A stretch of DNA of 25,350 nucleotides. Source: a virus. Every line of letters begins with the position of its first letter. Positions within the stretch are counted from its first letter, which is position 1. Below the pieces are notes generated by a model. That model had not been told where the DNA came from, did not search any database, and saw only the letters and a list, made by a program, of their open reading frames with translations. A program made the translations under genes and the position numbers. The stretch spans positions 1-25,350 of the IMG/VR virus record IMGVR_UViG_3300033571_008694. The stretch is one strand, 5' to 3'. Positions 572-25,350 of the stretch are shown here, piece by piece.

Positions 572-1393
572 ATGAGTGATCACTATAATACATTAGGCGT
601 TGGACGAAATGCCAACGCAGACGAAATTAAAAAAGCCTACCGAAAGTTGGCTGGCAAACACCATCCCGATCGTGGTGGGGATACCAAACGGTTTCAGCAA
701 ATTCAAGAAGCATACGATACCCTAAGCGATCCAGGTAAGCGCCAGCAATACGACAATCCTCAACCAGAATTCCGTTTCCATACAGGAAATATGGGAGGGT
801 TTGAAGATATGTTTTCAAACTTTGGTTTTGGAGGCATGGGGCGTAGACAGCAAGTACGAAGAAATAAAAACGTTACTATACAAGTACGCATGACCTTAAA
901 AGATATTTTTGAAGGCAAGGAAGTAGTAGGAAGTATTCGACTACCCAGCGGCAAAGATCAAGCACTACAGATAAAAATACCAAGAGGTGTACAACACGGA
1001 GATCAGATTAGATTCCAGGGCCTAGGAGACGATAGTTTACCGGGAATACCCAAAGGCGATCTAATTGCCAACATTGTTCAACTACCCGATCATCGATATC
1101 GTAGAGATGGCCCGCATCTCTTTACTGAAGCACAGATAAATGCCTTTGATGCTATACTAGGCACTACTATTGTTGTGGACACTATTGCAGATACTCATTT
1201 AGAAATTTCAGTTCCTGCAGGAATTCAACATGGACAAATGATTAATTGTAGGGGACATGGGTTATACGAAATGAACAGACATGACTCCAGGGGTAGCATG
1301 TTTGTTGTAATTAATGTTACTACGCCTAATAATTTAGAACCTGGCGACAGAGTAGTATTAGAAAAACTACAGAGGAAATATGCAGGTCAGTGA
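572..1393 (+). CDS. dnaJ: DnaJ/CbpA-like Hsp40 co-chaperone
   Basis: This 273-residue protein has a full J domain at about residues 1-68 with the HPD triad at 31-33, which stimulates ATP hydrolysis by DnaK. A Gly/Phe-rich linker follows at about 72-92, then a two-lobed substrate-binding C-terminal domain (about 98-265). The zinc-finger CxxCxGxG region of type I DnaJ is absent, so it is a type II, CbpA-like Hsp40. It probably recruits host DnaK to phage proteins during assembly or replication. No DnaK gene is visible. There is no clear Shine-Dalgarno: the ATG follows the T-tract of the preceding terminator, and the predicted leader is only about 17 bases. It overlaps the deformylase gene by 14 bases, implying translational coupling. 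Confidence 0.93.
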   Translation: MSDHYNTLGVGRNANADEIKKAYRKLAGKHHPDRGGDTKRFQQIQEAYDTLSDPGKRQQYDNPQPEFRFHTGNMGGFEDMFSNFGFGGMGRRQQVRRNKNVTIQVRMTLKDIFEGKEVVGSIRLPSGKDQALQIKIPRGVQHGDQIRFQGLGDDSLPGIPKGDLIANIVQLPDHRYRRDGPHLFTEAQINAFDAILGTTIVVDTIADTHLEISVPAGIQHGQMINCRGHGLYEMNRHDSRGSMFVVINVTTPNNLEPGDRVVLEKLQRKYAGQ

Positions 1394-1889
1394 TTTCCAA
1401 CTTAAAAAAGATCCAGATCCGATACTTTATCAAAAATTAGAAGATTACGATTTTTCTTGTGGTATGGATCCATATGAAATCGAACGTGTGATGATTGCCA
1501 TAATGGAAGATGAATATGGCATTGGCATTTCGGCCAATCAAGTAGGATTTGATAAAAGAGTTGTAATAGTAAAACCAAAAGGACAATCGGCTTTTGCATT
1601 GTTTAATCCTGTTATTATAGAACGACACGGAGAATGTTCAGACGAAGAAGGATGTCTAAGTTTTCCAGGTTTGTTTATGCAGATAAAAAGATTCGAAACT
1701 ATTACTGCAAAATATCTTGACAAGGATGCAAAAGAATGTACAATTACATTGTCTGGTATGGATGCCAAGTGTCTTCAGCATGAAATAGATCATTTGGACG
1801 GAATAGTTTTTACCAGTCATGTTAGCAAAATGAAATTAGATTTAGCACGTAAACGTCAAAGGAAATTATTAAATGGTAGAACCAAGTGA
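1380..1889 (+). CDS. def: Peptide deformylase
   Basis: At 169 residues this is the usual length of bacterial deformylase. All three motifs are present: GIGISANQ at 47-54 (motif I, GxGxAAxQ), EGCLS at 90-94 with the metal-ligand Cys92, and QHEIDHLDG at 133-141 with the HExxH residues His134, Glu135 and His138. The enzyme removes the N-formyl group from nascent proteins. Phage deformylases are known from marine T4-like phages, where they are thought to support fast processing of viral proteins. The start at 1380 overlaps dnaJ, with AGAGG a few bases upstream; the stop overlaps clpA by 17 bases. It sits between a chaperone and an unfoldase, which suggests a shared role in protein maturation and quality control. 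Confidence 0.96.
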   Translation: MQVSDFQLKKDPDPILYQKLEDYDFSCGMDPYEIERVMIAIMEDEYGIGISANQVGFDKRVVIVKPKGQSAFALFNPVIIERHGECSDEEGCLSFPGLFMQIKRFETITAKYLDKDAKECTITLSGMDAKCLQHEIDHLDGIVFTSHVSKMKLDLARKRQRKLLNGRTK

Positions 1890-4125
1890 AGAACTACAAG
1901 CAGTCTTTGAAAAAGCAGTAGAAGATTGTAAAAAACTCAGTCACGAATATGTGACACTAGAGCATCTTACATTCGCTATATTATGCGAGGAAAAATTCTA
2001 CGAGTTATTGACTAACTACGGTGCCAACACAGAATATGTTAAAACTAATCTCGAACATCACTTAAAAACCAAGTGTGAAGATATTATTTTAGAAAACCCT
2101 GGCAAATACAAACCAAAGAAAACACAATCCGTTGAGCGTGTGTTAAATCGTGCATTTACACAAGTTCTTTTCAGCGGCCGCCAGAGTATTGAACTGTTAG
2201 ATGTATTCCTTAGCATTCTTAGCGAAAAACGCAGTTATGCTGTCTACTATCTAAACAAGGGCGGAATAGAAAAAGATAAGTTTGCTGACTTTATCAATAA
2301 CGAAGTTGAAAGCGAAGAAGAAGAACACACCAGCGACGGGCAAAGTGAAAAAGCCCTTCGTAGTTTTACCACTAATTTAAACGATCAGGTTAAAAAGAGT
2401 AAAGTTGATCCTGTGATTGGTCGTGAATTTGAATTAGAACAAATTGCACTAGGACTTGGACGTAGAACAAAAAATAATGTTCTGTTAGTTGGTGATCCTG
2501 GTGTTGGTAAGACTGCTATTGCAGAAGGTTTAGCCTATAATATTGTTAACGACAATGTTCCAAAGTTTTTAAAAGAATATACTGTTTATAACTTGGATAT
2601 CAGTAGTATGTTGGCTGGTAGTAAGTACCGCGGCGACTTTGAAGAACGTTTTAAACTTGTACTTAAGGCTCTGCAAAGCAAAGGCAAGACTGTGCTGTTT
2701 ATCGACGAAGCACATATGATTTCTGGTGCAGGTGCAGGAGGACAACAAAATAGCAACGATCTTGCTAACATGATGAAACCAGCATTGAGCAAAGGTAACA
2801 TCAAAGTTGTAGCAAGTACTACTTGGGAAGAATATCGCAAGTACTTTGAAAAAGATCGTGCCCTAATGCGTCGATTCCAACGTGTTACTGTAGACGAACC
2901 TACAGCAGACATGGCACGTGATATTCTTCTTGGAATTAAGAAATATTATGAAAAACATCATAATGTTATTATTACAGATGAAGCCGTTGAATCAGCAGTT
3001 AAACTATCAGTAAAATATATCACTGATAAGAAATTGCCAGATAAAGCCATTGACTTAATTGACGTTGCTTGCAGTCGATTTAATATTAAAGAACAGGATG
3101 AAAATCGAATTGTAGATGTTCCTGAAGTACAGTTTGAACTCAGTAAGATGGTTAACTTACCTGAGGAAACAGTTAAAGAGAGAGAAAGTTCTAATTTAGT
3201 TAATCTAGAAAAGAACATGAAAGCAGAAGTGTACGGACAAGATGAAGCCATTGGCGAACTTATTGATAAGATTTTAGTAGCACAGGCAGGATTAAAACCA
3301 GAAAACAAACCTATCGGAAGTTTTGTATTCATGGGTCCAACAGGCACTGGTAAAACAGAAACTGCTAAACAGTTGGCTAAACAAATGGGCATTCCGATGA
3401 TTCGCTTTGATATGAGCGAATATCAGGAAAAGCACAGTGTTAGTAAATTAATTGGTAGTCCTCCGGGCTATGTTGGCTTTGAAGAAAACGCAGGCCTACT
3501 GATTACTAAACTACAAGAACATCCACATTGTGTGTTGTTGTTAGATGAAATTGAAAAATCTCATCCAGATGTATCCACTATTCTTCTACAACTTATGGAC
3601 AATGGTAAGGTCACTGGTAGTAACGGTAAAGAAGCAGATGCTCGTAACGTAGTATTAATTATGACTACTAACTTGGGTGCCGCTGATGCAGATCGCAATG
3701 TTATCGGATTTGGTAATCAAGACAGTGAATATGAAGATCGAGAACTTAAGAAGTTCTTTGCTCCAGAGTTCCGTAATCGTTTAGATGGTATTATCACATT
3801 TGGTAAACTTAGCAAAGAAACTATGATTAAGGTAGTAGGCAAGTTCTTAGTAGAACTTAAAGCACAAATCAAAGACAAAGACATTGATATCACTATTTCC
3901 AACGACGCAATAGATTATCTAGTTGAAAAAGGCTTTGATAAGAAGATGGGTGCCCGTCCTCTACAACGTGTAATCGATAAAGATATTAAACGTCCGCTAA
4001 GTAAGAGTATGTTGTTTGGAGACTTAAAAGGCGGCGGTCGTGTTCATATCGATGTACAAGATAACGAGTTAGTCCTTAAAACTGAAAATGAAACAAATAA
4101 AGAAAACCAATCATCTGTTCTATGA
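1873..4125 (+). CDS. clpA: ClpA-like double-AAA+ unfoldase
   Basis: The 750-residue protein has the ClpA layout. An N-terminal Clp-N-type helical domain (about 1-140) is followed by an acidic linker, a first AAA+ module with Walker A GDPGVGKT at 207-214 and Walker B VLFIDEAH, and a second module with Walker A GPTGTGKT at 488-495 and Walker B VLLLDEIE. The long coiled-coil middle domain of ClpB is absent, so disaggregase activity is unlikely. The second module carries IGF at 611-613, in the position of the ClpP-docking loop (IGL in ClpA, IGF in ClpX). This suggests it can dock on a ClpP protease. No ClpP gene is in the window, so host ClpP is the likely partner. It overlaps def upstream and an unknown gene downstream (38 bases). 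Confidence 0.93.
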   Translation: MVEPSEELQAVFEKAVEDCKKLSHEYVTLEHLTFAILCEEKFYELLTNYGANTEYVKTNLEHHLKTKCEDIILENPGKYKPKKTQSVERVLNRAFTQVLFSGRQSIELLDVFLSILSEKRSYAVYYLNKGGIEKDKFADFINNEVESEEEEHTSDGQSEKALRSFTTNLNDQVKKSKVDPVIGREFELEQIALGLGRRTKNNVLLVGDPGVGKTAIAEGLAYNIVNDNVPKFLKEYTVYNLDISSMLAGSKYRGDFEERFKLVLKALQSKGKTVLFIDEAHMISGAGAGGQQNSNDLANMMKPALSKGNIKVVASTTWEEYRKYFEKDRALMRRFQRVTVDEPTADMARDILLGIKKYYEKHHNVIITDEAVESAVKLSVKYITDKKLPDKAIDLIDVACSRFNIKEQDENRIVDVPEVQFELSKMVNLPEETVKERESSNLVNLEKNMKAEVYGQDEAIGELIDKILVAQAGLKPENKPIGSFVFMGPTGTGKTETAKQLAKQMGIPMIRFDMSEYQEKHSVSKLIGSPPGYVGFEENAGLLITKLQEHPHCVLLLDEIEKSHPDVSTILLQLMDNGKVTGSNGKEADARNVVLIMTTNLGAADADRNVIGFGNQDSEYEDRELKKFFAPEFRNRLDGIITFGKLSKETMIKVVGKFLVELKAQIKDKDIDITISNDAIDYLVEKGFDKKMGARPLQRVIDKDIKRPLSKSMLFGDLKGGGRVHIDVQDNELVLKTENETNKENQSSVL

Positions 4126-8261: not shown

Positions 8262-8479
8262 TGGACATAAAAGATTTAAAACGTCTTGCTGGCATAGAAG
8301 AATTCAAAGGATATAAGCCCGTTGAAGGTATTAATATTTCTCATACCGGCACAGAAAAACGTGAACTTGAACGTAAGCACAACATTAGACCTGGTACACC
8401 TGAATGGTTCCAATTATGGTTTAGTCTGCCTTACATGACTGGCGAAAAACCAGTGGGCAAAGGAATCAGAAACAAATGA
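8261..8479 (+). CDS. Small conserved phage protein
   Basis: This 72-residue protein begins MDIKDLKRLAGIEE. It contains the DLKRLAGI element that resembles the C-terminal tags of the proteins ending at 6223 and 12521. The second half, RPGTPEWFQLWFSLPYMTGEKP, is a compact, Trp/Phe/Pro-rich segment I associate with small conserved proteins of marine T4-like phages, without known function. The start overlaps the previous stop by one base and the end overlaps the next gene by four. It probably belongs to the virion or prohead core, because it sits among capsid-targeted genes and carries the LAG motif. Confidence 0.75.
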   Translation: MDIKDLKRLAGIEEFKGYKPVEGINISHTGTEKRELERKHNIRPGTPEWFQLWFSLPYMTGEKPVGKGIRNK

Positions 8480-9861
8480 GATTTCGTGACATAGAACCTA
8501 AAAAGTTAGTGGTCTTTGACATAGACGATACTTTAGTACATACCCAAACTAAGGTACACGTAGTCAAAGACGGCAAAGTTGTTAAGAGTTTAAACAGTCA
8601 CGACTTCACACACTATAAACTACAGCCTGGCGAAAAGTTTGATTTTGAAGATTTTAAAAATGCTAGAGAATTTTTTGACAATCATAAACCTATTATTCCT
8701 ATGATGAATCAGCTCAAACGTGATATTGCTACAGGTAATAAAGTTGTAATGGTAACTGCTCGATCTGATTTTGACGACAAAGAATTATTTCTAGATACGT
8801 TTCGTAAGTATGGAATAGATATGAACAAAGTTCATGTTTATCGAGCAGGTAATATCAAAGACGGATCAACAGAACAGCGTAAAAAAACAATTATTAAAAC
8901 ATTGCTAGATAAAGGTAATTATACCAAGGCCATTATGTATGATGATGCGAAACCTAATCTACATAGTTTTATGGAATTAAAAAAGGATCATCCTCATACA
9001 CGCTTTTATGCATGGTTGGTTAGTCTTGAAGGTGAGGCTTCTGAATACATGCGAGAGGACCTTGTCAGCGAACGTAAAAAGAAAAGAAAAAAGAATAAAA
9101 GTAAACGTACATACGGTGCAGTATGGGGTCCAGGTCCTTATGGGCTGTACGGTTGGGACGCAGGATACAGCGGTAGTGGTGGAGTATCGTCCGGCGACGG
9201 CGGTGGCGGTGTTGGCGAAGACATAGAAGAAGGTTGGAAAGATTGGGTAGCAGGTGCGGCACTAGGTGCGGCGGCATTAACTGCCAGTCCAGACGTTACA
9301 GCCAAAGTAGACAACAAAGCCGGTGTTATACAACAAGTTAAGAAAAAAGATATTGCTAAAACTGTAACAGGTTCGCCTCACGAAGTAGTATTAAAGAAAT
9401 ATGCAGAGAAAGCAGGAATAAAAGGTCAAGAACTTGCGGCGTTCTTAGCACAGTGCGCACATGAAACAATGAACTTTAAACACATGAAGGAAATTGGAGG
9501 CAGTCTAGACTTCCGTAAATACGATCCCAAGTATGCACCTAAGAAGGCCAAAGCACTAGGCAATAAAGTTGTAGGTGACGGTGCCAAGTTTAAAGGAAGA
9601 GGATACATACAACTTACTGGTCGTTATAATTATAAACGTGCCGGAGAAGCGTTAGGATTACCTTTAGAAAAACATCCTGAATTAGTTGAAAAACCTGAAG
9701 TGGCTGCCAAAGTTGCCGTGTGGTATTGGCAAAATCGTGTTGCTCCAAAGGTTGATACATTTAAAGATGTTAGAGCAGTAACTAAACCTATTAACCCAGG
9801 TATGAAACATTTAGATCAAAGAAAAGAGAAACATCAAGCATTCCAGGTGGCCATGAAATGA
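8476..9861 (+). CDS. HAD phosphatase - GH19 muramidase fusion, probable injected protein
   Basis: The 461-residue protein joins two enzymes. Residues 1-190 are a HAD-type phosphatase: DIDDTL with Asp15 and Asp17, motif II VTARSD at 93-98, and YDDAKPN around 155-161. A basic Lys/Arg patch and a Gly/Ser/Tyr-rich linker (about 200-248) follow, then I-E-E/G at 250-253, a consensus prohead protease site. After it come WKDW and a hydrophobic Ala-rich segment (about 257-271). Residues from about 310 are a GH19 chitinase/lysozyme-type domain with the catalytic Glu330 in AHETMNF and GRGYIQLTGRYNY at 374-386. The muramidase could open peptidoglycan during DNA entry or at lysis. The internal cleavage site suggests the halves separate in the capsid. 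Confidence 0.87.
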   Translation: MRFRDIEPKKLVVFDIDDTLVHTQTKVHVVKDGKVVKSLNSHDFTHYKLQPGEKFDFEDFKNAREFFDNHKPIIPMMNQLKRDIATGNKVVMVTARSDFDDKELFLDTFRKYGIDMNKVHVYRAGNIKDGSTEQRKKTIIKTLLDKGNYTKAIMYDDAKPNLHSFMELKKDHPHTRFYAWLVSLEGEASEYMREDLVSERKKKRKKNKSKRTYGAVWGPGPYGLYGWDAGYSGSGGVSSGDGGGGVGEDIEEGWKDWVAGAALGAAALTASPDVTAKVDNKAGVIQQVKKKDIAKTVTGSPHEVVLKKYAEKAGIKGQELAAFLAQCAHETMNFKHMKEIGGSLDFRKYDPKYAPKKAKALGNKVVGDGAKFKGRGYIQLTGRYNYKRAGEALGLPLEKHPELVEKPEVAAKVAVWYWQNRVAPKVDTFKDVRAVTKPINPGMKHLDQRKEKHQAFQVAMK

Positions 9862-16576: not shown

Positions 16577-17290
16577 ATGATAGAAATAATTTATACACTT
16601 ATAGTAACACACATTACCATAATATGCGTTACTTTATACTTACACAGAAATCAAGCTCACCGAGGCATAGAATTTCACCCAACCCTAAGTCACTTTATGC
16701 GTTTTTGGTTATGGATGACTACAGGAATGACAACTAAGCAATGGGTAGCAGTACATCGTAAACATCATCAAAATACAGATGTAGAAGGCGATCCGCATAG
16801 CCCACATGTATTTGGTATTTGGCAATTAGTATTTGGTGGCGTCAAATACTATAATCGTGCAGGTAGTGATGCTCACATGATTGTAAAATACGGTGCAGGT
16901 ACTCCCAAAGACTGGATTGAACGCAAACTTTATACACCCCACCATCGTCTTGGTATTCTCTTAATGTTAGTTATAGACTTGTTATTATTTGGTCCATGGG
17001 GATTTCTAGTGTGGGGTGTTCAAATGTTATGGATCCCTTTCTGGGCCGCTGGCTTTATTAACGGTATTGGTCACTGGTGGGGATACCGCAACGGAGAAAC
17101 CAAGGATCATAGTCACAATGTAAGTCCATGGGGAATATTAATTGGCGGTGAAGAACTGCACAACAATCATCACCTAGATCCTGCTAATCCTAAACTAAGT
17201 CGTCGTTGGTTTGAATTTGACATTGGCTGGATGTGGTTTAAAATATTCAATATGTTAGGTTTGGCTAAATTGCGTAATCAAATTCCTTGA
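16577..17290 (+). CDS. Membrane fatty acid desaturase
   Basis: The 237-residue protein has the three His boxes of membrane acyl desaturases: HRNQAH at 23-28, HRKHH at 60-64 and HNNHH at 195-199, which bind the di-iron centre. GHWWGYRN at 165-172 is typical of the delta-9 acyl-CoA/acyl-lipid branch. Hydrophobic segments lie at about 3-20, 38-52 and 125-164. It should introduce a cis double bond into membrane acyl chains, raising fluidity of the host membrane. It is shorter than many family members but complete in motifs. The gene begins 2 bases after the aldolase stop. Confidence 0.92.
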   Translation: MIEIIYTLIVTHITIICVTLYLHRNQAHRGIEFHPTLSHFMRFWLWMTTGMTTKQWVAVHRKHHQNTDVEGDPHSPHVFGIWQLVFGGVKYYNRAGSDAHMIVKYGAGTPKDWIERKLYTPHHRLGILLMLVIDLLLFGPWGFLVWGVQMLWIPFWAAGFINGIGHWWGYRNGETKDHSHNVSPWGILIGGEELHNNHHLDPANPKLSRRWFEFDIGWMWFKIFNMLGLAKLRNQIP

Positions 17291-17962: not shown

Positions 17963-20635
17963 ATGAGTTACGTTGACGCTCTGTTTGACAGAGAGAATGA
18001 TATTATCAAGGTCGTTGAAAGAAACGACAAAGGCGAAAGGGTTTTTAAAGAACACCCAGTACGCTACACATTTTACTATCCAGACGCTAGAGGCAAGTTC
18101 CAAAGTATCTATGGTGATCCTCTTACACGAGTAGTATGTAAAAATTCCAAAGACTTCCGTAAAGAATTAGCCATTAACAGTGGTAAAGACTTGTACGAAA
18201 GCGATATTAATCCAATTTTCGTACACCTAAGCGAAAATTATCTTAATCAAGATGCGCCTAAGTTAAACATTTGTTTCTTCGACATCGAAGTGGATTTTGA
18301 TCCAGAACGTGGCTATAGCACTCCCGAAGATGCGTTTATGCCTATTACTGCTATCACTGTTCATCTTAAATGGTTAGACAAATTAATTACACTTGCCATG
18401 CCTCCAAAAACTCTTACTATGGAGCAAGCAAAAGAATCAATTAAAGATATTCCAGATACGCACTTGTTTGATAACGAAGGCGATATGTTGGAAACATTCT
18501 TAGACTTAATTCAAGATGCTGACATTATTAGTGGTTGGAATAGTGAAGGCTATGATGTTCCCTATACTGTTAATCGAGTAACCCGTGTACTGAGTAAAGA
18601 AGATACTAAACGATTCTGTCTTTGGGGACAACTTCCTAAGAAACGTGAATACGAAAAATACGGGAAACAGGCTGTTACTTATGACTTCCACGGTCGTGTG
18701 CATTTAGACAGTCTCGAACTGTATCGTAAGTACACATACGAAGAACGTCATACATATCGTTTAGATGCTATCGGTGAAATGGAAATTGGCGAGAACAAAA
18801 CTGTTTACGAAGGTACGTTAGATCAGTTGTACAACAATGACTTTAAAAAGTTTATTGTGTATAACAGACAAGATACTGCACTACTAAACAAACTAGACGA
18901 TAAACTTAAATTTATTGATCTTGCTAATAAACTAGCACATGAATGTACAGTATTGTTACAGACTACCATGGGTGCTGTGGCTGTTACCGAACAGGCTATT
19001 ATTAACGAAGCACATCGCAGAGGATTTCAAGTGCCTAATCGTCCTAAACGTGACGAAGGCGAAGATACTGCGGCCGCAGGTGCTTATGTTGCTTATCCTA
19101 AAGATGGTCTTCAAGACTGGATCGGATCACTAGACATTAACTCATTGTATCCTAGTGCGATTCGTGCATTAAACATGGGTCCAGAAACTATTGTTGGACA
19201 ACTACGTCCTGTATATACGCAGGCACATATTCACGAACAAACAACTCTTAAGAAAAAATCATTTGCGGCTGCTTGGGAAGGAATGTTTGGCACTGTGGAA
19301 TACGAAGCAGTTATGGAAAAACGTAGAGATACTGAAATTACCATAGACTGGGAGGATGGCAACAGTACTGTACACAGTGCCGCAGAAGTACATCAATTAA
19401 TCTTTGATAGCAATCAACCTTGGATGGTTAGTGCTAACGGTACTATCTTTACCTATGAAAAAGAAGGAATTATTCCCGGACTGCTAAAGCGTTGGTATGC
19501 CGAACGTAAAGAAATGCAGGCCAAACTTAAAGAATGTATAACGGCGGGAAATAAAATTGAAGAAGAATATTGGGACAAACGTCAGTTGGTTAAAAAAATT
19601 AACCTTAATAGTCTTTACGGTGCTATTCTTAATCCTGGGTGTCGTTTTTTCGATAAGCGTATCGGTCAGTCTACCACTCTTACAGGACGTCAAATTGCCA
19701 AGCACATGGCTAGTAAGGTAAATGAGATTATTACTGGGGAATACAATCACGTAGGTCGTGCTGTTATATACGGCGACACAGACTCCTGTTATTTCAGTGC
19801 TTATTCTACACTAAAGAAAGACATTGAATCAGGTGTTATTCCGTGGACTAAAGAAAATGTTATTGCACTTTATGATCAAATAGGAGAAGAAGTTAATGGC
19901 ACGTTTGTTAAATTCATGGAACAACAGTTCCACTGTCCGCCCAGTAGAGGAGAAGTCATCAAAGCAGGTCGCGAGATTGTTGCTTCCAAAGGATTATTCA
20001 TCACAAAGAAAAGATATGCCGTGCTCTACTTTGACAAAGAAGGCAAGCGTACCGATATTGATGGTAAACCGGGAAAAATTAAAGCCATGGGACTCGACCT
20101 CAAACGAAGCGATACTCCTGCATTCATCCAAGACTTCCTAAGTGATGTTCTTGAACGTGTACTAACTGGTGCTACAGAAACTGAAGTACTAGATTTTATC
20201 ACAGCGTTCCGTACAGAATTTAAGAGCAGACCGGGTTGGGAGAAAGGTAGCCCTAAACGTGCTAACAATATTACTGAGTATGCCGCCAAAGAAGCCAAAG
20301 CCGGTAAAGCAAACATGCCAGGCCACGTTCGTGCAAGTATTAACTGGAACACACTACGTAGAATGAATGGCGACAAATACAGTATGCAAATTGTAGACGG
20401 ATCCAAAGTCATTGTATGTAAACTTAGAGATAATCCACTAGGGTTTACATCTGTTGCATATCCTGTAGACGAACTGAGATTGCCAAAATGGTTTATGGAA
20501 CTGCCATTCGACGATGCCGAAATGGAAAGTACTATTATAGACAACAAGTTAGAAAATCTGATTGGTGTACTTCATTGGGACATCAAATCAACCGAAGAGA
20601 AAAATACATTCAATAAATTGTTTGACTTTTCTTAA
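17963..20635 (+). CDS. 43: Family-B replicative DNA polymerase (gp43-like)
   Basis: The 890-residue protein matches T4 gp43 in length and motif order. The 3'-5' exonuclease begins with FFDIEVDF (Asp107, Glu109), then SGWNSEGYDVPY and YNRQDTALL. The polymerase has motif A LDINSLYPS (Asp391), motif B KKINLNSLYG and motif C YGDTDS (Asp605 and Asp607). The C-terminus FNKLFDFS resembles the clamp-binding tail of T4-type polymerases. It replicates the phage genome with the clamp encoded next. Two hairpins with 8-base loops stand before its AAGGAG, suggesting autogenous translational control. No intein or truncation is visible. Confidence 0.97.
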   Translation: MSYVDALFDRENDIIKVVERNDKGERVFKEHPVRYTFYYPDARGKFQSIYGDPLTRVVCKNSKDFRKELAINSGKDLYESDINPIFVHLSENYLNQDAPKLNICFFDIEVDFDPERGYSTPEDAFMPITAITVHLKWLDKLITLAMPPKTLTMEQAKESIKDIPDTHLFDNEGDMLETFLDLIQDADIISGWNSEGYDVPYTVNRVTRVLSKEDTKRFCLWGQLPKKREYEKYGKQAVTYDFHGRVHLDSLELYRKYTYEERHTYRLDAIGEMEIGENKTVYEGTLDQLYNNDFKKFIVYNRQDTALLNKLDDKLKFIDLANKLAHECTVLLQTTMGAVAVTEQAIINEAHRRGFQVPNRPKRDEGEDTAAAGAYVAYPKDGLQDWIGSLDINSLYPSAIRALNMGPETIVGQLRPVYTQAHIHEQTTLKKKSFAAAWEGMFGTVEYEAVMEKRRDTEITIDWEDGNSTVHSAAEVHQLIFDSNQPWMVSANGTIFTYEKEGIIPGLLKRWYAERKEMQAKLKECITAGNKIEEEYWDKRQLVKKINLNSLYGAILNPGCRFFDKRIGQSTTLTGRQIAKHMASKVNEIITGEYNHVGRAVIYGDTDSCYFSAYSTLKKDIESGVIPWTKENVIALYDQIGEEVNGTFVKFMEQQFHCPPSRGEVIKAGREIVASKGLFITKKRYAVLYFDKEGKRTDIDGKPGKIKAMGLDLKRSDTPAFIQDFLSDVLERVLTGATETEVLDFITAFRTEFKSRPGWEKGSPKRANNITEYAAKEAKAGKANMPGHVRASINWNTLRRMNGDKYSMQIVDGSKVIVCKLRDNPLGFTSVAYPVDELRLPKWFMELPFDDAEMESTIIDNKLENLIGVLHWDIKSTEEKNTFNKLFDFS

Positions 20636-20671: not shown

Positions 20672-21403
20672 ATGAAAGATATTTTACAAGACATCGTAGC
20701 ACATACACACAGCCTAGGCTTCTTGCCTTTGGTTAAAATTTCAGGTGCGGACGATTCAACAACAATTGAAAGTATGGCTGAAGATCGTTCAGTTATTGTA
20801 ACTGCTAATGCTCACAAGGCTGTAGAAGAATTTGTTGGCACATTTGGTATGCCAAATTTAGACAAACTTAATTTGCATTTAAAAAATCCTGAATATAAAG
20901 AAAATGCTAAAATTGATGTAGTCAAGGCAGAACGTAACGGTGCAGTTGTTCCAACAGGTCTACACTTTGAAAATCAAGCAGGTGACTTTCAGAATGACTA
21001 TCGCTTTATGAATGCAGATATCATTAATGAAAAATTAAAGAGTGTTAAGTTTAAAGGCGCTAGTTGGGAAGTTGAATTCAAACCTAGTGTTGCTAGTATT
21101 CAGCGTCTTAAACTACAGGCCGAAGCACACAGCGAAGAAAGTGTTTTTCAAGTTCGTACAGAAGATGGTAATCTAGTAATTTTCTTTGGCGATGCAGCCA
21201 GCCACGCAGGTAGTTTTGTATTCCAACATGATGTTGGTGGTAAATTAAAACACACTTGGAGTTGGCCAGTTAATCAGGTACGTAGTATCCTTAACTTAGA
21301 CGGTGATGTTACTATGAAGATTGCCGATGCAGGTGCCATGCAGATTACTGTTGACAGCGGTATTGCAGAATATAACTACATTCTACCAGCACAGAGCAAG
21401 TAA
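20672..21403 (+). CDS. 45: Sliding clamp (gp45-like)
   Basis: The 243-residue protein has the length of T4 gp45 (about 228) and the mixed beta/alpha pattern of a two-domain clamp subunit, which forms a trimeric ring. Recognisable stretches are FVGTFGMPNLDKLNLHLKNP and the final SGIAEYNYILPA, both familiar from T4-type clamps. It tethers the polymerase and, in T4, also activates late transcription through gp33 and gp55, which fits the late promoters found here. It has its own promoter and AAGGAG. The stop overlaps the antiporter start (TAATG). The clamp-loader genes do not follow, unlike the T4 order. Confidence 0.9.
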   Translation: MKDILQDIVAHTHSLGFLPLVKISGADDSTTIESMAEDRSVIVTANAHKAVEEFVGTFGMPNLDKLNLHLKNPEYKENAKIDVVKAERNGAVVPTGLHFENQAGDFQNDYRFMNADIINEKLKSVKFKGASWEVEFKPSVASIQRLKLQAEAHSEESVFQVRTEDGNLVIFFGDAASHAGSFVFQHDVGGKLKHTWSWPVNQVRSILNLDGDVTMKIADAGAMQITVDSGIAEYNYILPAQSK

Positions 21404-22569
21404 TGGCTACTCTGCTAATTGTTATTGCGGCCATGGTATTTTTTCCATGGTTGATTTTAAAAATAACTAGATTAGAAAAATGGGTGCCATTGCCTGTGGC
21501 GCAGATTGCGTTTGGTATTTGTTTTGGCCCTAGTGCTTTAGGAATGTACTGGCCAGAACTATGGACTGATATTTTTACTCAGCCAGTACGTGTAGGGTTA
21601 GATGCAATACAGTTACTGGCTATTACTATTTTTGCCTTTATTGCAGGTGTTGAATTAAAACCTAAAGAAATTATTGCTAGGGAAGGATCTAAGATTTGGA
21701 CACAGGCCATTCAAGTAATTATTGTTCCAATTATCCTAGCAAGTATTGCCTTTTTAGTATTTTTCGACAGCAATGTATGGCATAGTCCAGATGTTCCTTT
21801 TTGGAAATACGCCTGGGCAATGGGTGTAGCAACTTGTATTACTGCTATACCTATGCTAGTAGTTTCTTGTAAATCTCTAGGAATCTGGGGCAGTCATACC
21901 AGTAAAAAGTTATTAGGTATTGTAACTTTTGACGACTTAATACTATGGATTACTGTGGCTTTAATTATTAGTATAGGTGAGTTCTTAGTAAATTCGGCTA
22001 TATTTTTTACAGTTTTAGCAATCTTATTTGTTGTATGGCCTAAAATATTGGACCGCCTTGGAGAAGATTCTTGGCCATCTATGATTGTATCACTTGTATT
22101 ATTAATGGCGTTTTTTAGTCACTGGGCCGGATTACACTATATATTCGGAGCATTTTTTGCCGGAATGATTACACCTAGAAAAGCAGTTAAGTGGAATGAA
22201 GGAATGGACTATCAACAGATGTTCTGGTTGATGCCTGTATTTTTTATCTGGGCTGGTCTTAAAACACAATGGACCATTAACTTAGAATTAATTTTCCTAG
22301 CGGCTATTGGCATGTATTTTATTTCTTTAATTACAAAGTTTATCGGCGTTTGGTTAGCCTATAAACAAGAGGGCATGCGAGTAGTATGTTTTAAAACCGC
22401 TATGTTACAAAACAAAGGGTTAATGGAAATAGTTTTGGTTACAATGCTGTTGACTGCCAATGTTATTAGTGTTAACATGTTTGCGGCTGTAGTTATAATG
22501 AGTCTAATTAGTACAGTCAGTGCTGTGCCGTTAGCAAGGCTATTTTTTGATAAAAAAATGGAACAATAA
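21403..22569 (+). CDS. Kef/CPA-type cation:proton antiporter
   Basis: The 388-residue protein is almost wholly hydrophobic with about 11-12 predicted membrane helices, as in monovalent cation:proton antiporters. Supporting elements are the early helix pair with FGICFGPSALGM, FAFIAGVELKPKEI, and the conserved acidic pair Asp177-Asp178 in VTFDDLILW, at the position of the ion-binding DD/ND motif. It lacks the C-terminal nucleotide-binding domain of Kef channels. It probably exchanges Na+ or K+ for H+ across the inner membrane. A phage copy could hold host pH or ion balance during infection. Translation is coupled to the clamp gene by a TAATG junction. Confidence 0.88.
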   Translation: MATLLIVIAAMVFFPWLILKITRLEKWVPLPVAQIAFGICFGPSALGMYWPELWTDIFTQPVRVGLDAIQLLAITIFAFIAGVELKPKEIIAREGSKIWTQAIQVIIVPIILASIAFLVFFDSNVWHSPDVPFWKYAWAMGVATCITAIPMLVVSCKSLGIWGSHTSKKLLGIVTFDDLILWITVALIISIGEFLVNSAIFFTVLAILFVVWPKILDRLGEDSWPSMIVSLVLLMAFFSHWAGLHYIFGAFFAGMITPRKAVKWNEGMDYQQMFWLMPVFFIWAGLKTQWTINLELIFLAAIGMYFISLITKFIGVWLAYKQEGMRVVCFKTAMLQNKGLMEIVLVTMLLTANVISVNMFAAVVIMSLISTVSAVPLARLFFDKKMEQ

Positions 22570-22585
22570 TAAAAGGTAAAAAGTG

Positions 22586-23074
22586 ATGTCATCAAGGGAA
22601 AAGACGCAGGATGATTTAGATTTAGAAACGTTGATCGATTTATTCGACACAGCACTAACTTCTAATAATCCTGCTATGAAAAAAGCCATTAAGAACTTGC
22701 TTCTTGTGGCTACGCTAATCGACAGTGAATTAACACCAGAACAGCGTATTCGCAGGCCGTTGCGTCAGGCATTTGAAGATATGCGTGATCTTAGTCGACG
22801 CATGAGTATAATCGAAGCGGAACAGCGTAATCAAAAAAGTTATTATATATCTCCTATGCCAGCCACTCCCTATAGTCCAGCGCCTGCAACTCCTTGGCCT
22901 AACCCTAACGTCAACACACCTTGGACTATTCCGAATCCCAGTACAGGTCCAGTTTGGACTACAGGAACTGGTTCAACATCAACTAGTTACAAAATATCTA
23001 ATAATGTCAGCACTACTGCATTTGATGATCAATTCCGTGCAGAAGATCTATTAACCAAATTAGAGAATAAATGA
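22586..23074 (+). CDS. Conserved phage protein next to the TGT-like gene
   Basis: The ATG at 22586 is preferred over a GTG 3 bases earlier; AAAAGG lies about 9 bases upstream. The 162-residue protein has an acidic helical N-terminal domain (LETLIDLFDTALTSNNPAM, VATLIDSELTPEQRIRRPL) to about residue 85. A Pro/Ser/Thr/Trp-rich flexible region follows (about 88-135) and then a short tail. I recognise the N-terminal pattern from T4-like marine phages, where function is unknown. Its end overlaps the next start by four bases. Confidence 0.72.
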   Translation: MSSREKTQDDLDLETLIDLFDTALTSNNPAMKKAIKNLLLVATLIDSELTPEQRIRRPLRQAFEDMRDLSRRMSIIEAEQRNQKSYYISPMPATPYSPAPATPWPNPNVNTPWTIPNPSTGPVWTTGTGSTSTSYKISNNVSTTAFDDQFRAEDLLTKLENK

Positions 23075-24645
23075 ATACAAATTTAACTGCCGCACAAAAT
23101 GATTACGCTGTGTTTTTGCCAGCACTTAGCGGGTTTTATGCTACCTATGTGGGCAAGCAAAGATATCCAGATCCCGTAAAAGGATTATATGTAGATCCTG
23201 CTAGAATACCTAGTAATTTTAAAAATGGTATGGAGAGTCTTAACTGGCTCAATCCACAACAAGGTCAATTTCAATATCATTGGAGTTTATATTCTGCTGG
23301 ACATGCAGATTTAGATACTGCTAAACATAGTCCAAAAGAAGATATGGTGCGTAATCGTAATCGAGCAGATAGTTGGTTATTAGGTGACAGTGGCGGTTTC
23401 CAGATCGGTAAAGGCGTCTGGGAAGGCGATTGGAAGAATCCTAACTGCCCTAAAGCAATGAAAAAGCGCCAGCAAGTTCTTGCTTGGATGGATGCGTATA
23501 TGGACTATGGAATGATCTTAGATATTCCTGCTTGGGTGTGCCGCAGTCCTAGAGGTAGGGAAGCCACAGGGATTAACAGTTACATGGAGGCTGTACAGGG
23601 CACTTATATTAACAACGATTATTTTATTAACAATCGAAATGGTAATTGTAAATTTCTAAATGTTTTACAAGGTGAAAATCACGCAGAAGCAGACGACTGG
23701 TATGATCGTATGAAAAAGTATTGTGATCCTAAACAATACCCAGGACGTCATTTTAATGGCTGGGCTATGGGCGGTCAAAATATGTGTGATGTTCATTTAG
23801 TGTTAAGAAGATTAGTAGCATTACGTTTTGACGGTTTGTTAGAACCTGGTGTACATGATTGGATGCACTTCTTAGGAACTAGTAAATTAGAGTGGGCTAC
23901 TCTATTGACTGATATTCAACGTGCTGTAAGAAAATATCACAATCCAAACTTTACTATTAGTTTTGACTGTGCTAGTCCGTTCTTAGCAACTGCTAATGGA
24001 CAAATATATATTCAAACAGAAATTGAAGATAGAACCAAGTGGGTTTATAGAATGGTTCCTAGTATTGACGATAAAAAGTATCATCAAGATCATAGACCAT
24101 TCGGAGCCGCTGGTGTGCAAGATGGTCGTTTTAAAGGTTTCGAAGATAGCCCAATAAGTGCCGAACTTAAAGTATCAGATGTCTGTATATACGGACCAAA
24201 CGATATGAATAAGATTGGTAAAATTGGAAAAACTTCTTGGGATAGTTTTAGTTATGCTATTCAAATGGGCCATAACGTGTGGATGCATATCAACGCCGTA
24301 CAAGAAGCCAATCGACAATACGATGCCGGTATTGTTCCTGCCATGCTAGTACAAGAAAAATTTGATCGCTTATACTTTAAAGACATTGTAGAAGCAATTT
24401 TTGCAGCCAGTGATAGGAGTACTGCTGATGCAATAGTTGAAGAATACAGTAAATTTTGGATGAGTATTATTGGCACTCGAGGTGCTACTGGTAAAAAGAC
24501 TGTTAACGCTTCGACTAAATTTGCCGAATTATTTGACGAAGAAGAGTCAGAGACTGTACAATCAGAGCACGGTGAAGAATTTACTGAAGACGAAGAATCC
24601 AAACTTAATCAACTTGAAAACGATATAGACAACAATGAAGCGTGA
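23071..24645 (+). CDS. dpdA: TGT/DpdA-like base-exchange enzyme
   Basis: The 524-residue protein shows a tRNA-guanine transglycosylase-type barrel: LGDSGGFQ with Asp106, VLQGE at 198-202, GWAMGGQ at 230-236, and SFDCASPF with Asp299 in the place of the TGT nucleophile. The zinc motif CxCxxC...H of tRNA TGTs is not visible. DpdA proteins are TGT relatives that insert 7-deazaguanines into DNA, and phage versions protect DNA from host restriction. I infer a phage DpdA-type enzyme; a tRNA TGT is less likely. The C-terminal 45 residues are acidic and disordered. The symbol denotes the family resemblance only. Confidence 0.75.
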   Translation: MNTNLTAAQNDYAVFLPALSGFYATYVGKQRYPDPVKGLYVDPARIPSNFKNGMESLNWLNPQQGQFQYHWSLYSAGHADLDTAKHSPKEDMVRNRNRADSWLLGDSGGFQIGKGVWEGDWKNPNCPKAMKKRQQVLAWMDAYMDYGMILDIPAWVCRSPRGREATGINSYMEAVQGTYINNDYFINNRNGNCKFLNVLQGENHAEADDWYDRMKKYCDPKQYPGRHFNGWAMGGQNMCDVHLVLRRLVALRFDGLLEPGVHDWMHFLGTSKLEWATLLTDIQRAVRKYHNPNFTISFDCASPFLATANGQIYIQTEIEDRTKWVYRMVPSIDDKKYHQDHRPFGAAGVQDGRFKGFEDSPISAELKVSDVCIYGPNDMNKIGKIGKTSWDSFSYAIQMGHNVWMHINAVQEANRQYDAGIVPAMLVQEKFDRLYFKDIVEAIFAASDRSTADAIVEEYSKFWMSIIGTRGATGKKTVNASTKFAELFDEEESETVQSEHGEEFTEDEESKLNQLENDIDNNEA

Positions 24646-25162
24646 TTATGATACAGGCGTAGCCGAAAATGTTGAGTTTTTTGTTGGCGTTGAGATTGAA
24701 CGTACTCCTGCATACGGAATGAAAACTTTGTTTGTAGTAGGCGCTCACGACCCTGATAAAATTATTAATTTAGCTCGCAATAATAACTGTAAACATATAT
24801 ACTTTGGTGCTAATCAAAGTTTCCATACCAAAGGCGTAAACGACACAGAAGGTTGGCGTCCTTGGGAAATAATGATTAAAGCCTGTTTAGATAAAGATTT
24901 ATGGTGTACTTTAGATTTTGATGTAAAAGAAACAGAAGGACTGTTAGAAAGTATGCTAGTTGAATATCGTAGATTTATTCCGCAGATTAGTGTAAAATTG
25001 CCTTACATTAATCAACTAGGCTATAATGCTACATTAAAAATTGACGATAAAGATTTTAACGCTACTAATCCCGGAGTATGGTGTCATAATCTACAAAACT
25101 TGTTAAAAAGAGATTGTTTTACAGACTGGGATCAATATGGTAAGGACGAGATTATTAAATGA
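24635..25162 (+). CDS. Conserved companion of the TGT-like gene
   Basis: The 175-residue protein overlaps the TGT-like gene by 11 bases. It contains VGVEIERTPAYGMKTLFVVG, HIYFGANQSFH, CTLDFDVKETEGLLES, and IDDKDFNATNPGVWCH. Alternating short beta strands and helices suggest an alpha/beta fold, perhaps part of a TIM-barrel-like domain. There are no CxxxCxxC radical-SAM cysteines, so it is not QueE. I recall similar proteins beside TGT-like genes in marine phages but know no function. A role in making or handling the modified base is an inference from position. Confidence 0.75.
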   Translation: MKRDYDTGVAENVEFFVGVEIERTPAYGMKTLFVVGAHDPDKIINLARNNNCKHIYFGANQSFHTKGVNDTEGWRPWEIMIKACLDKDLWCTLDFDVKETEGLLESMLVEYRRFIPQISVKLPYINQLGYNATLKIDDKDFNATNPGVWCHNLQNLLKRDCFTDWDQYGKDEIIK

Positions 25163-25350
25163 AAATTAAACATGACATTAGACCTAACAAACTGATCTGG
25201 GTAACTTTCCGTAAGGAGGGCATCCACAAGTATCCTGCGGCATTAACAGATCCGGCACTAGCAACAGGAGACGAATATGACGTATCGTTTTTGGGTTATC
25301 CCCATCGCCACATTTTTCATTTCAGGGTGTGGATCAGTGTGCAACACAAT
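25159..25350 (+). CDS. Conserved phage protein with HRHxFHF motif (3' end outside window)
   Basis: An ATG at 25159 overlaps the previous stop, and the frame stays open for 64 codons to the window edge. The visible part begins MKIKHDIRPNKLIWVTFRKE and includes SFLGYPHRHIFHFRVWISVQ. The His cluster could bind zinc. A link to QueD/6-carboxytetrahydropterin synthase was considered, because these often accompany DpdA and use a His-rich site, but the CxxxHGH motif is absent, so I leave it unnamed. Same operon as the TGT-like gene. Confidence 0.7.
   Translation, partial: MKIKHDIRPNKLIWVTFRKEGIHKYPAALTDPALATGDEYDVSFLGYPHRHIFHFRVWISVQHN

What the first reader, a model, noticed from the sequence alone, without database searches (positions are those of the whole stretch)
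22586..25350. TGT-like enzyme without the zinc motif heading a probable DNA-modification cluster
Seen: TGT motifs with both catalytic Asp residues but no CxCxxC...H, and two tightly overlapping downstream genes of unknown function, one with an HRHxFHF cluster, running off the window. Known: DpdA proteins exchange guanine for 7-deazaguanines in DNA, and phages use them to resist restriction. Inference: the virion DNA is modified, and the unknown companions may supply or tailor the base.
Basis: partly seen in the sequence, partly recalled or inferred. Interest (0 to 1): 0.7.

Follow-up and report, generated by a model that had tools for sequence, protein, structure and literature searches.

The report
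Divergent phage DNA-guanine exchange enzyme cluster
A phage gene beside the DNA polymerase and sliding clamp encodes a distant relative of the enzymes that swap guanine in DNA for 7-deazaguanine bases, and related phages carry the base-making genes next to it, so these phages probably disguise their DNA with a modified guanine that may be made without the usual enzyme QueC.

Summary
ORF 23071-24645 (524 aa) has the TGT-type motifs in order (DSGGFQ, MILDIP, LQG, MGG, HFLG, SFDCASP) and no CxCxxC; the two downstream genes overlap as described. Pfam, NCBIfam, PHROGs and PDB sequence searches do not recognise it, but profile-profile comparison links it to phage DpdA2 (E 8e-9; reversed control 0.17). 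In relatives (at least 600 IMG/VR hits) it follows DNA polymerase and a gp45-type sliding clamp and precedes a 175-aa protein, a QueD-fold protein (the HRHxFHF gene), a GT4-like glycosyltransferase, then folE and queE. QueD lies elsewhere; QueC is almost always absent. Acidovorax ACP17, Xanthomonas X1 and Synechococcus BUCT-ZZ01 carry a similar module with a DpdA2 in this slot. New here: the enzyme's tail carries an FxxLF(D/E) peptide like the C-terminus of the phage's own polymerase (78/84 and 73/74), suggesting tethering to the clamp. Best reading: a DNA-guanine transglycosylase of a distinct DpdA2-related subfamily that inserts a base derived from 7-carboxy-7-deazaguanine near the replication fork. 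Not shown: the base itself, the role of the QueD-like protein, glycosylation, clamp binding. New variant of a known kind.

The parts
23071..24645 (+). DpdA2-related DNA-guanine transglycosylase (524 aa), zinc motif absent
   Evidence: TGT motifs in order; hhalign to DpdA2 E 8e-9; no Pfam/NCBIfam hit
23386..23388 (+). Asp106 codon, DSGGFQ motif (catalytic Asp by homology to TGT)
   Evidence: invariant; aligned with DSGGLQ of DpdA2
23965..23967 (+). Asp299 codon, SFDCASP motif (nucleophile Asp by homology to TGT)
   Evidence: invariant; aligned with SYDSSTH of DpdA2
24520..24534 (+). FAELF (residues 484-488), candidate sliding-clamp-binding peptide
   Evidence: motif in 78/84 family members and 73/74 polymerases, rare in other families; binding not tested
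24635..25162 (+). c3, 175-aa conserved partner of unknown function, weakly STAS-like N-terminal part
   Evidence: downstream of the enzyme in 64/70 loci with flank; AlphaFold2 pLDDT 79; no confident fold match; homologue in ACP17 cluster
25159..25350 (+). c2, QueD-fold protein with the HRHxFHF cluster (start only; runs off the window)
   Evidence: full-length relative: AlphaFold2 pLDDT 88; best PDB match E. coli QueD E 2.4e-4
17963..20635 (+). Family-B DNA polymerase, C-terminus NTFNKLFDFS
   Evidence: phrog_262 E 2.6e-203; upstream in 56/57 loci
20672..21403 (+). Sliding clamp (gp45-type), 243 aa
   Evidence: hhalign to gp45 alignment E 6.3e-6, reversed 0.022; relatives annotated sliding clamp or PCNA; upstream in 75/76 loci

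Best explanation
A divergent DpdA, related to DpdA2, exchanges guanine in newly replicated phage DNA for a 7-deazaguanine base. FolE, QueD and QueE of the same phages make 7-carboxy-7-deazaguanine (CDG). The QueD-fold protein c2 stands where QueC would otherwise act and probably processes CDG, perhaps decarboxylating it to 7-deazaguanine. The transglycosylase is probably held at the replication clamp by its FxxLFD tail peptide. A GT4-like glycosyltransferase and the 175-aa protein may tailor the modified DNA further. Shown by computation: homology, motifs, gene content of relatives, the predicted fold of c2, conservation of the peptide. Inferred: all activities, the identity of the base, clamp binding, glycosylation. 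The confidence below is for a DNA-guanine transglycosylase inserting a 7-deazaguanine base; my estimates for the sub-steps are about 0.6 (c2 acts on CDG in place of QueC), 0.6 (clamp tethering) and 0.35 (a sugar on the base).
For: Profile homology to DpdA2 with all motifs aligned (controls). folE in 28/36 relatives' records, QueD in 13/36 including the large ones, QueE next door. The similar module in ACP17, X1 and BUCT-ZZ01 has a DpdA2 in the slot of the window enzyme. Polymerase and clamp directly upstream. c2 has the QueD fold; true QueD is also present in c2-bearing phages, and QueC is absent in most c2-bearing records but present in nt-1, CAjan and Vibrio 2.275.O, which have no c2 hit. 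Tail peptide shared with polymerase. DpdA is experimentally required for 7-deazaguanine in CAjan DNA (PMC6884629).
Against: No enzyme, base or binding was tested. The window ends before folE and queE, so their presence in this very phage is inferred from relatives. The fold of the 524-aa enzyme was not predicted. Only half or fewer of the fragmentary records show QueD. One c2-bearing phage (D479) has a partial QueC-like match over cut-off. If c2 yields plain 7-deazaguanine, the glycosyltransferase has no obvious acceptor on the base.
Confidence: 0.8

Rival explanations
1. The enzyme is a phage tRNA-guanine transglycosylase: it modifies tRNA to alter decoding, and FolE/QueD/QueE boost queuosine precursors.
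For: TGT motifs are shared with tRNA enzymes. Phages with preQ0 genes but no DpdA have been suggested to boost Q in tRNA (PMC6884629).
Against: Closest relatives are DpdA2, not TGT; no PF01702 match in any of 36 records; no zinc motif; gene sits with polymerase and clamp and carries a polymerase-like tail peptide.
Confidence: 0.08
2. The phage relies on host QueC (or host preQ0), so the inserted base is preQ0 or a derivative, and c2 is a second QueD or an accessory subunit rather than a CDG-processing enzyme.
For: Many bacteria have QueC; a phage can use host enzymes (the 9g genes worked with the E. coli pathway, PMC6884629). c2 has the QueD fold.
Against: True QueD is present besides c2; c2 lacks a Cys before its HxH pair where E. 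coli QueD has CGRLHGH (versus my knowledge of QueD); c2 and phage QueC are nearly mutually exclusive.
Confidence: 0.3
3. The FxxLF tail peptide is a chance or structural hydrophobic motif and does not bind the clamp.
For: It lies about 30 residues from the end in most members instead of at the end; DpdA2 of nt-1 and its two nearest relatives lack it; related sequences are not independent.
Against: 78/84 members versus 4.6% of other proteins of at least 100 aa; tails resemble the polymerase of the same phage, e.g. ACP17 LDELFE / LDDLFE, Vibrio 2.275.O NNNDLFGW / NNTDLFDW. In T4 a clamp epitope made internal still works (PMC2988020).
Confidence: 0.35
4. The glycosyltransferase and c3 serve another target (capsid, host surface or another base), not the 7-deazaguanine.
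For: The acceptor is unknown; 7-deazaguanine itself has no handle at C7. Thymidylate synthase family genes (PF00303) are present in 12/29 records, so a modified pyrimidine is not excluded.
Against: GT sits in the run with DpdA, c2 and QueE in ACP17, X1, PA5oct and BUCT-ZZ01, i.e. with two kinds of DpdA.
Confidence: 0.5

Closest known systems
DpdA2 of Vibrio phage nt-1 and relatives (Hutinet et al. 2019, PMC6884629)
   Same: Same motif order, both catalytic Asp positions, no CxCxxC, works beside FolE/QueD/QueE; profile homology E 8e-9
   Different: No BLAST-level similarity (nt-1 absent from tblastn hits); longer N- and C-terminal parts; adjacent to clamp and polymerase; QueC normally absent
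DpdA (DpdA1) of phages 9g and CAjan
   Same: Predicted function: inserting 7-deazaguanine bases into DNA
   Different: No detectable profile similarity to CAjan DpdA with a single sequence; that phage uses QueC
DpdA3, DpdA4, DpdL (Cui et al. 2023, NAR; recalled, paper not held)
   Same: As I recall, DpdL is a predicted CDG decarboxylase in QueC-less phages, the role proposed here for c2
   Different: Could not be compared; whether the window enzyme equals DpdA3 is unknown. CP220 ORFs show no match to the profiles used
QueD / 6-pyruvoyltetrahydropterin synthase
   Same: c2 has the fold (Foldseek E 2.4e-4 to 4ntk; Z 10.5, rmsd 2.5 over 105 residues) and an HxH pair, a further His and a Glu
   Different: No sequence-level match to PF01242; no Cys before the HxH pair; occurs in addition to true QueD
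T4 alpha-glucosyltransferase binding gp45 (PMC13216743)
   Same: Post-replicative DNA modifier that co-purifies with the sliding clamp
   Different: Different enzyme and base; that paper finds clamp binding is not the main cause of its larger share of modification

Membership tests
TGT/DpdA superfamily (guanine transglycosylases) | Ordered motifs with two catalytic Asp (DSGGFQ and the FDC/SYD motif) | tested here: met
TGT (Pfam PF01702, tRNA enzymes) | Match to the curated profile | tested here: not met
   no match for the window protein or in 36 records of relatives, while all 14 control genomes rang
TGT (Pfam PF01702, tRNA enzymes) | Zinc site CxCxxC...H | tested here: not met
   absent in 85/85 members
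DpdA2 | Homology over the catalytic domain by profile | tested here: met
   hhalign prob 95.8, E 8e-9, 189 columns; reversed control 0.17
DpdA2 | Falls within the DpdA2 group by sequence similarity | tested here: not met
   tblastn finds no nt-1 or other DpdA2 record at E 1e-5, whereas ACP17, X1 and BUCT-ZZ01 match DpdA2 at E below 1e-58
DpdA3 / DpdA4 | Sequence similarity to the reference members | not tested
   references not available; CP220 search inconclusive
DpdA (function) | 7-deazaguanine in phage DNA dependent on the gene | not testable with these tools
   needs nucleoside mass spectrometry and gene deletion
QueD (c2, HRHxFHF protein) | Tunnelling fold as in QueD/PTPS | tested here: met
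QueD (c2, HRHxFHF protein) | Catalytic Cys before the HxH pair (E. coli QueD CGRLHGH; from my knowledge) | tested here: not met
   no conserved Cys there in 18 members; the only invariant Cys is C100 in KSCE
DpdL (CDG decarboxylase) | Sequence similarity to DpdL and activity on CDG | not tested
   reference paper not held; co-occurrence pattern only
GT4-type glycosyltransferase (c5) | Glycos_transf_1 domain and EX7E pattern | tested here: met
   EX7E invariant; homologue in X1 hits PF00534 at 8e-12, c5 to X1 GT hhalign E 3e-27; c5 itself is below cut-off
T4-type clamp-binding protein | Hydrophobic/acidic tail peptide like that of the phage's own polymerase | tested here: met
T4-type clamp-binding protein | Binding to the sliding clamp | not testable with these tools
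   needs pull-down or calorimetry

The most novel reading that the evidence does not exclude
A large, unnamed subfamily of phage DNA-guanine transglycosylases rides on the replication sliding clamp and, with a QueD-fold protein in place of QueC and a dedicated glycosyltransferase, builds a glycosylated 7-deazaguanine not yet described in DNA.
Probability: 0.2. Interest if true: 0.85.

Novelty: new variant of a known kind. Interest (0 to 1): 0.6.

Why it matters
None of the family libraries searched names this enzyme, and the cultured homologues found are annotated 'hypothetical protein', although it is very common in aquatic phages and present in laboratory-grown jumbo phages such as the PA5oct group. 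If right, it predicts modified DNA in those phages, a route without QueC, and a physical link between base exchange and the replisome, all testable on existing phage stocks.

Tried and rejected
Sequence search of the PDB with the enzyme and with its profile: no TGT hit. Sequence profiles of c2 against QueD and FolE: nothing significant, and my QueD set was partly flawed; only the predicted structure showed the fold. c3 as a degenerate QueE or a TGT fragment: hhalign E 0.27 (QueE), 0.26 (window family) and 0.08 (DpdA2), so no sequence support; E. coli QueE appears at Z 6.0 among many unrelated folds, uninformative. c3 fold: STAS proteins lead (RsbS Z 8.1, rmsd 3.3 over 92 residues), with barrels in Foldseek, none confident. 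DpdA3 in Campylobacter CP220: not found with these profiles. HMMER search of A1 in nt-1 and CP220 found nothing, not even nt-1's own DpdA2, so it shows nothing. IMG/VR scans with the PA5oct and Vibrio 2.275.O proteins found no loci; the Phosso protein found two. Clamp test by PDB profile gave nothing and a single gp45 was too weak; a gp45 alignment worked.

Full report
What is there. On the + strand the window holds a family-B DNA polymerase (17963-20635), a 243-aa protein (20672-21403), an Na+/H+ exchanger (21403-22569), a non-conserved 163-aa ORF (22583-23074), the TGT-like gene (23071-24645), a 175-aa gene called c3 here (24635-25162) and the start of the HRHxFHF gene, called c2 (25159 onward). 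The TGT-like protein has six motifs in TGT order and no zinc motif.

What the enzyme is. Pfam, PHROGs, NCBIfam and PDB sequence searches give nothing significant. tblastn finds thirteen cultured phage records (eleven PA5oct-like Pseudomonas records, Sinorhizobium Phosso, Vibrio 2.275.O), all annotated 'hypothetical protein', and an IMG/VR scan finds at least 600 stretches, of which 80 loci were kept. An alignment of 15 members against DpdA2 of Vibrio phage nt-1 and its relatives gives hhalign probability 95.8 and E 8e-9 over 189 columns: DSGGFQ aligns with DSGGLQ, MILDIP with MCFDEIP, LQG with the HGN/LQG stretch, HFLG with HMLG and SFDCASP with SYDSSTH. The reversed control gives 0.17, and the ORFs of Campylobacter phage CP220 give 0.006 at best. 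It is a homologue of DpdA2 but lies outside DpdA2 by pairwise similarity. Comparisons with single sequences of CAjan DpdA and E. coli TGT were not informative.

Where it sits. In loci with enough flank, polymerase lies upstream in 56/57 and the 243-aa protein in 75/76; downstream lie c3 in 64/70, c2 in 66/70, a glycosyltransferase-like protein (c5, about 356 aa) in 53/55, folE in 32/43 and queE in 27/43. Most of these loci are close relatives, so the counts are not independent events. The 243-aa protein is homologous to T4-type gp45 (E 6.3e-6; reversed 0.022), and depositors call relatives sliding clamp or proliferating cell nuclear antigen. QueD (PF01242) is found in 13 of 36 records, including the large contigs G003, G015, G019 and G032 and all three cultured phages; FolE in 28 of 36. 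QueC is strong only in Vibrio 2.275.O, with one borderline partial match over cut-off elsewhere.

The same kind of module with another transglycosylase. Acidovorax ACP17 has queD, folE, c3, a DpdA2, the GT, c2 and queE in one run. Xanthomonas X1 has folE, the GT, a gene annotated queuine tRNA-ribosyltransferase that matches DpdA2 at E 9e-59, c2 and queE. Synechococcus BUCT-ZZ01 has folE, a DpdA2 (E 6e-92), c2 and the GT. A different enzyme filling the same slot beside the same partners is the strongest argument that the window enzyme does the job of a DpdA.

The HRHxFHF protein c2. AlphaFold2 of a full-length relative (pLDDT 88) shows the strand-strand-helix-helix-strand-strand order of the tunnelling fold. 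Foldseek's best match is E. coli QueD (E 2.4e-4, probability 1.00); VIA-align 2 gives Z 10.5, rmsd 2.5 over 105 residues for 4ntk. It keeps H30, H56, H58 and E126 but has no conserved Cys before the HxH pair. True QueD is present besides c2 in the c2-bearing cultured phages tested, so c2 is not simply the QueD. Of 13 c2-bearing records searched for QueC, 11 have none, X1 has a sub-threshold match and D479 a partial one over cut-off; nt-1, CAjan and Vibrio 2.275.O, which show no c2 hit, have QueC. This fits a role on CDG in place of QueC. From memory, Cui et al. 2023 predicted a CDG decarboxylase, DpdL; the paper is not held, so identity of c2 with DpdL is a lead, not a result.

The glycosyltransferase c5 and c3. 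c5 has an invariant EX7E pattern and matches the X1 GT (hhalign E 3e-27), which matches Pfam Glycos_transf_1 at 8e-12. Its acceptor is unknown: if c2 removes the carboxylate, C7 offers no handle, so either c2 does something else in these phages or the GT acts elsewhere. c3 goes with c5 in the window family, PA5oct and ACP17; its fold is unresolved.

The tail peptide. Within the last 70 residues, [FLMIY]xxLF occurs in 78/84 TGT-like proteins and 73/74 polymerases; no other cluster with at least eight members of 100 aa or more has it in a majority, and 4.6% of all other such proteins have it. One small-protein cluster reaches 6/11. The tails resemble those of the polymerase of the same phage: window FAELFDE and FNKLFDF; PA5oct FNSLFDV and FDSLFGW; Vibrio 2.275.O NNNDLFGW and NNTDLFDW; ACP17 LDELFE and LDDLFE. 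DpdA2 of X1 and BUCT-ZZ01 and most IMG/VR DpdA2 loci end likewise (LEELFG, LDSFFD, LEDLFG), but nt-1 and its two nearest do not. In T4, polymerase, gp33 and gp55 bind gp45 by highly similar, interchangeable hydrophobic and acidic C-termini (PMC2988020), and alpha-glucosyltransferase co-purifies with gp45 (PMC13216743). The one held-library search for DpdA with sliding clamp showed no paper proposing this, but the library is partial.

Verdict. A DpdA2-related DNA-guanine transglycosylase in a 7-deazaguanine cluster that mostly lacks QueC is well supported. The exact base, the action of c2, c3 and the GT, and clamp tethering are testable inferences.

Noticed in passing
window 21403-22569: An Na+/H+ exchanger gene (PF00999, E 1e-22) lies between the clamp and the transglycosylase, as in a few close relatives (cluster 47): a possible host-physiology gene.
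   Followed up: no
window 8476-9861: One ORF joins an N-terminal stretch matching a polynucleotide-kinase PHROG (residues 7-167, phrog_415) to a C-terminal GH19 chitinase/endolysin domain (residues 306-458): an odd fusion.
   Followed up: no
window 572-4125: DnaJ, peptide deformylase and a ClpB/ClpA-type AAA+ ATPase gene lie in a row: host-like protein-quality genes in a phage.
   Followed up: no
window 16577-17290: Protein with histidine boxes (HRNQAH, HRKHH) that looks by eye like a fatty-acid desaturase; matches phrog_35201 of unknown function.
   Followed up: no
L004:7911-13989: Vibrio phage 2.275.O carries the window-family enzyme with QueC, QueF, a glutamine amidotransferase-like gene and FolE but no c2, c3 or GT hit: the same enzyme with a different base pathway.
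   Followed up: partly
L137:379-1722: In Synechococcus phage BUCT-ZZ01 a second protein between folE and DpdA2 looks by eye like a GT-B enzyme and ends SLEDFFND, like a clamp peptide.
   Followed up: no
L086:38416-39096: nt-1 protein of unknown function between QueD and FolE ends NSLANFF, like the tail of nt-1 polymerase (LESFFG), although nt-1 DpdA2 itself lacks such a tail.
   Followed up: no
L002:10912-11658: The PA5oct product annotated 'structural protein' (EST35_0314) belongs to the sliding-clamp family described here.
   Followed up: partly
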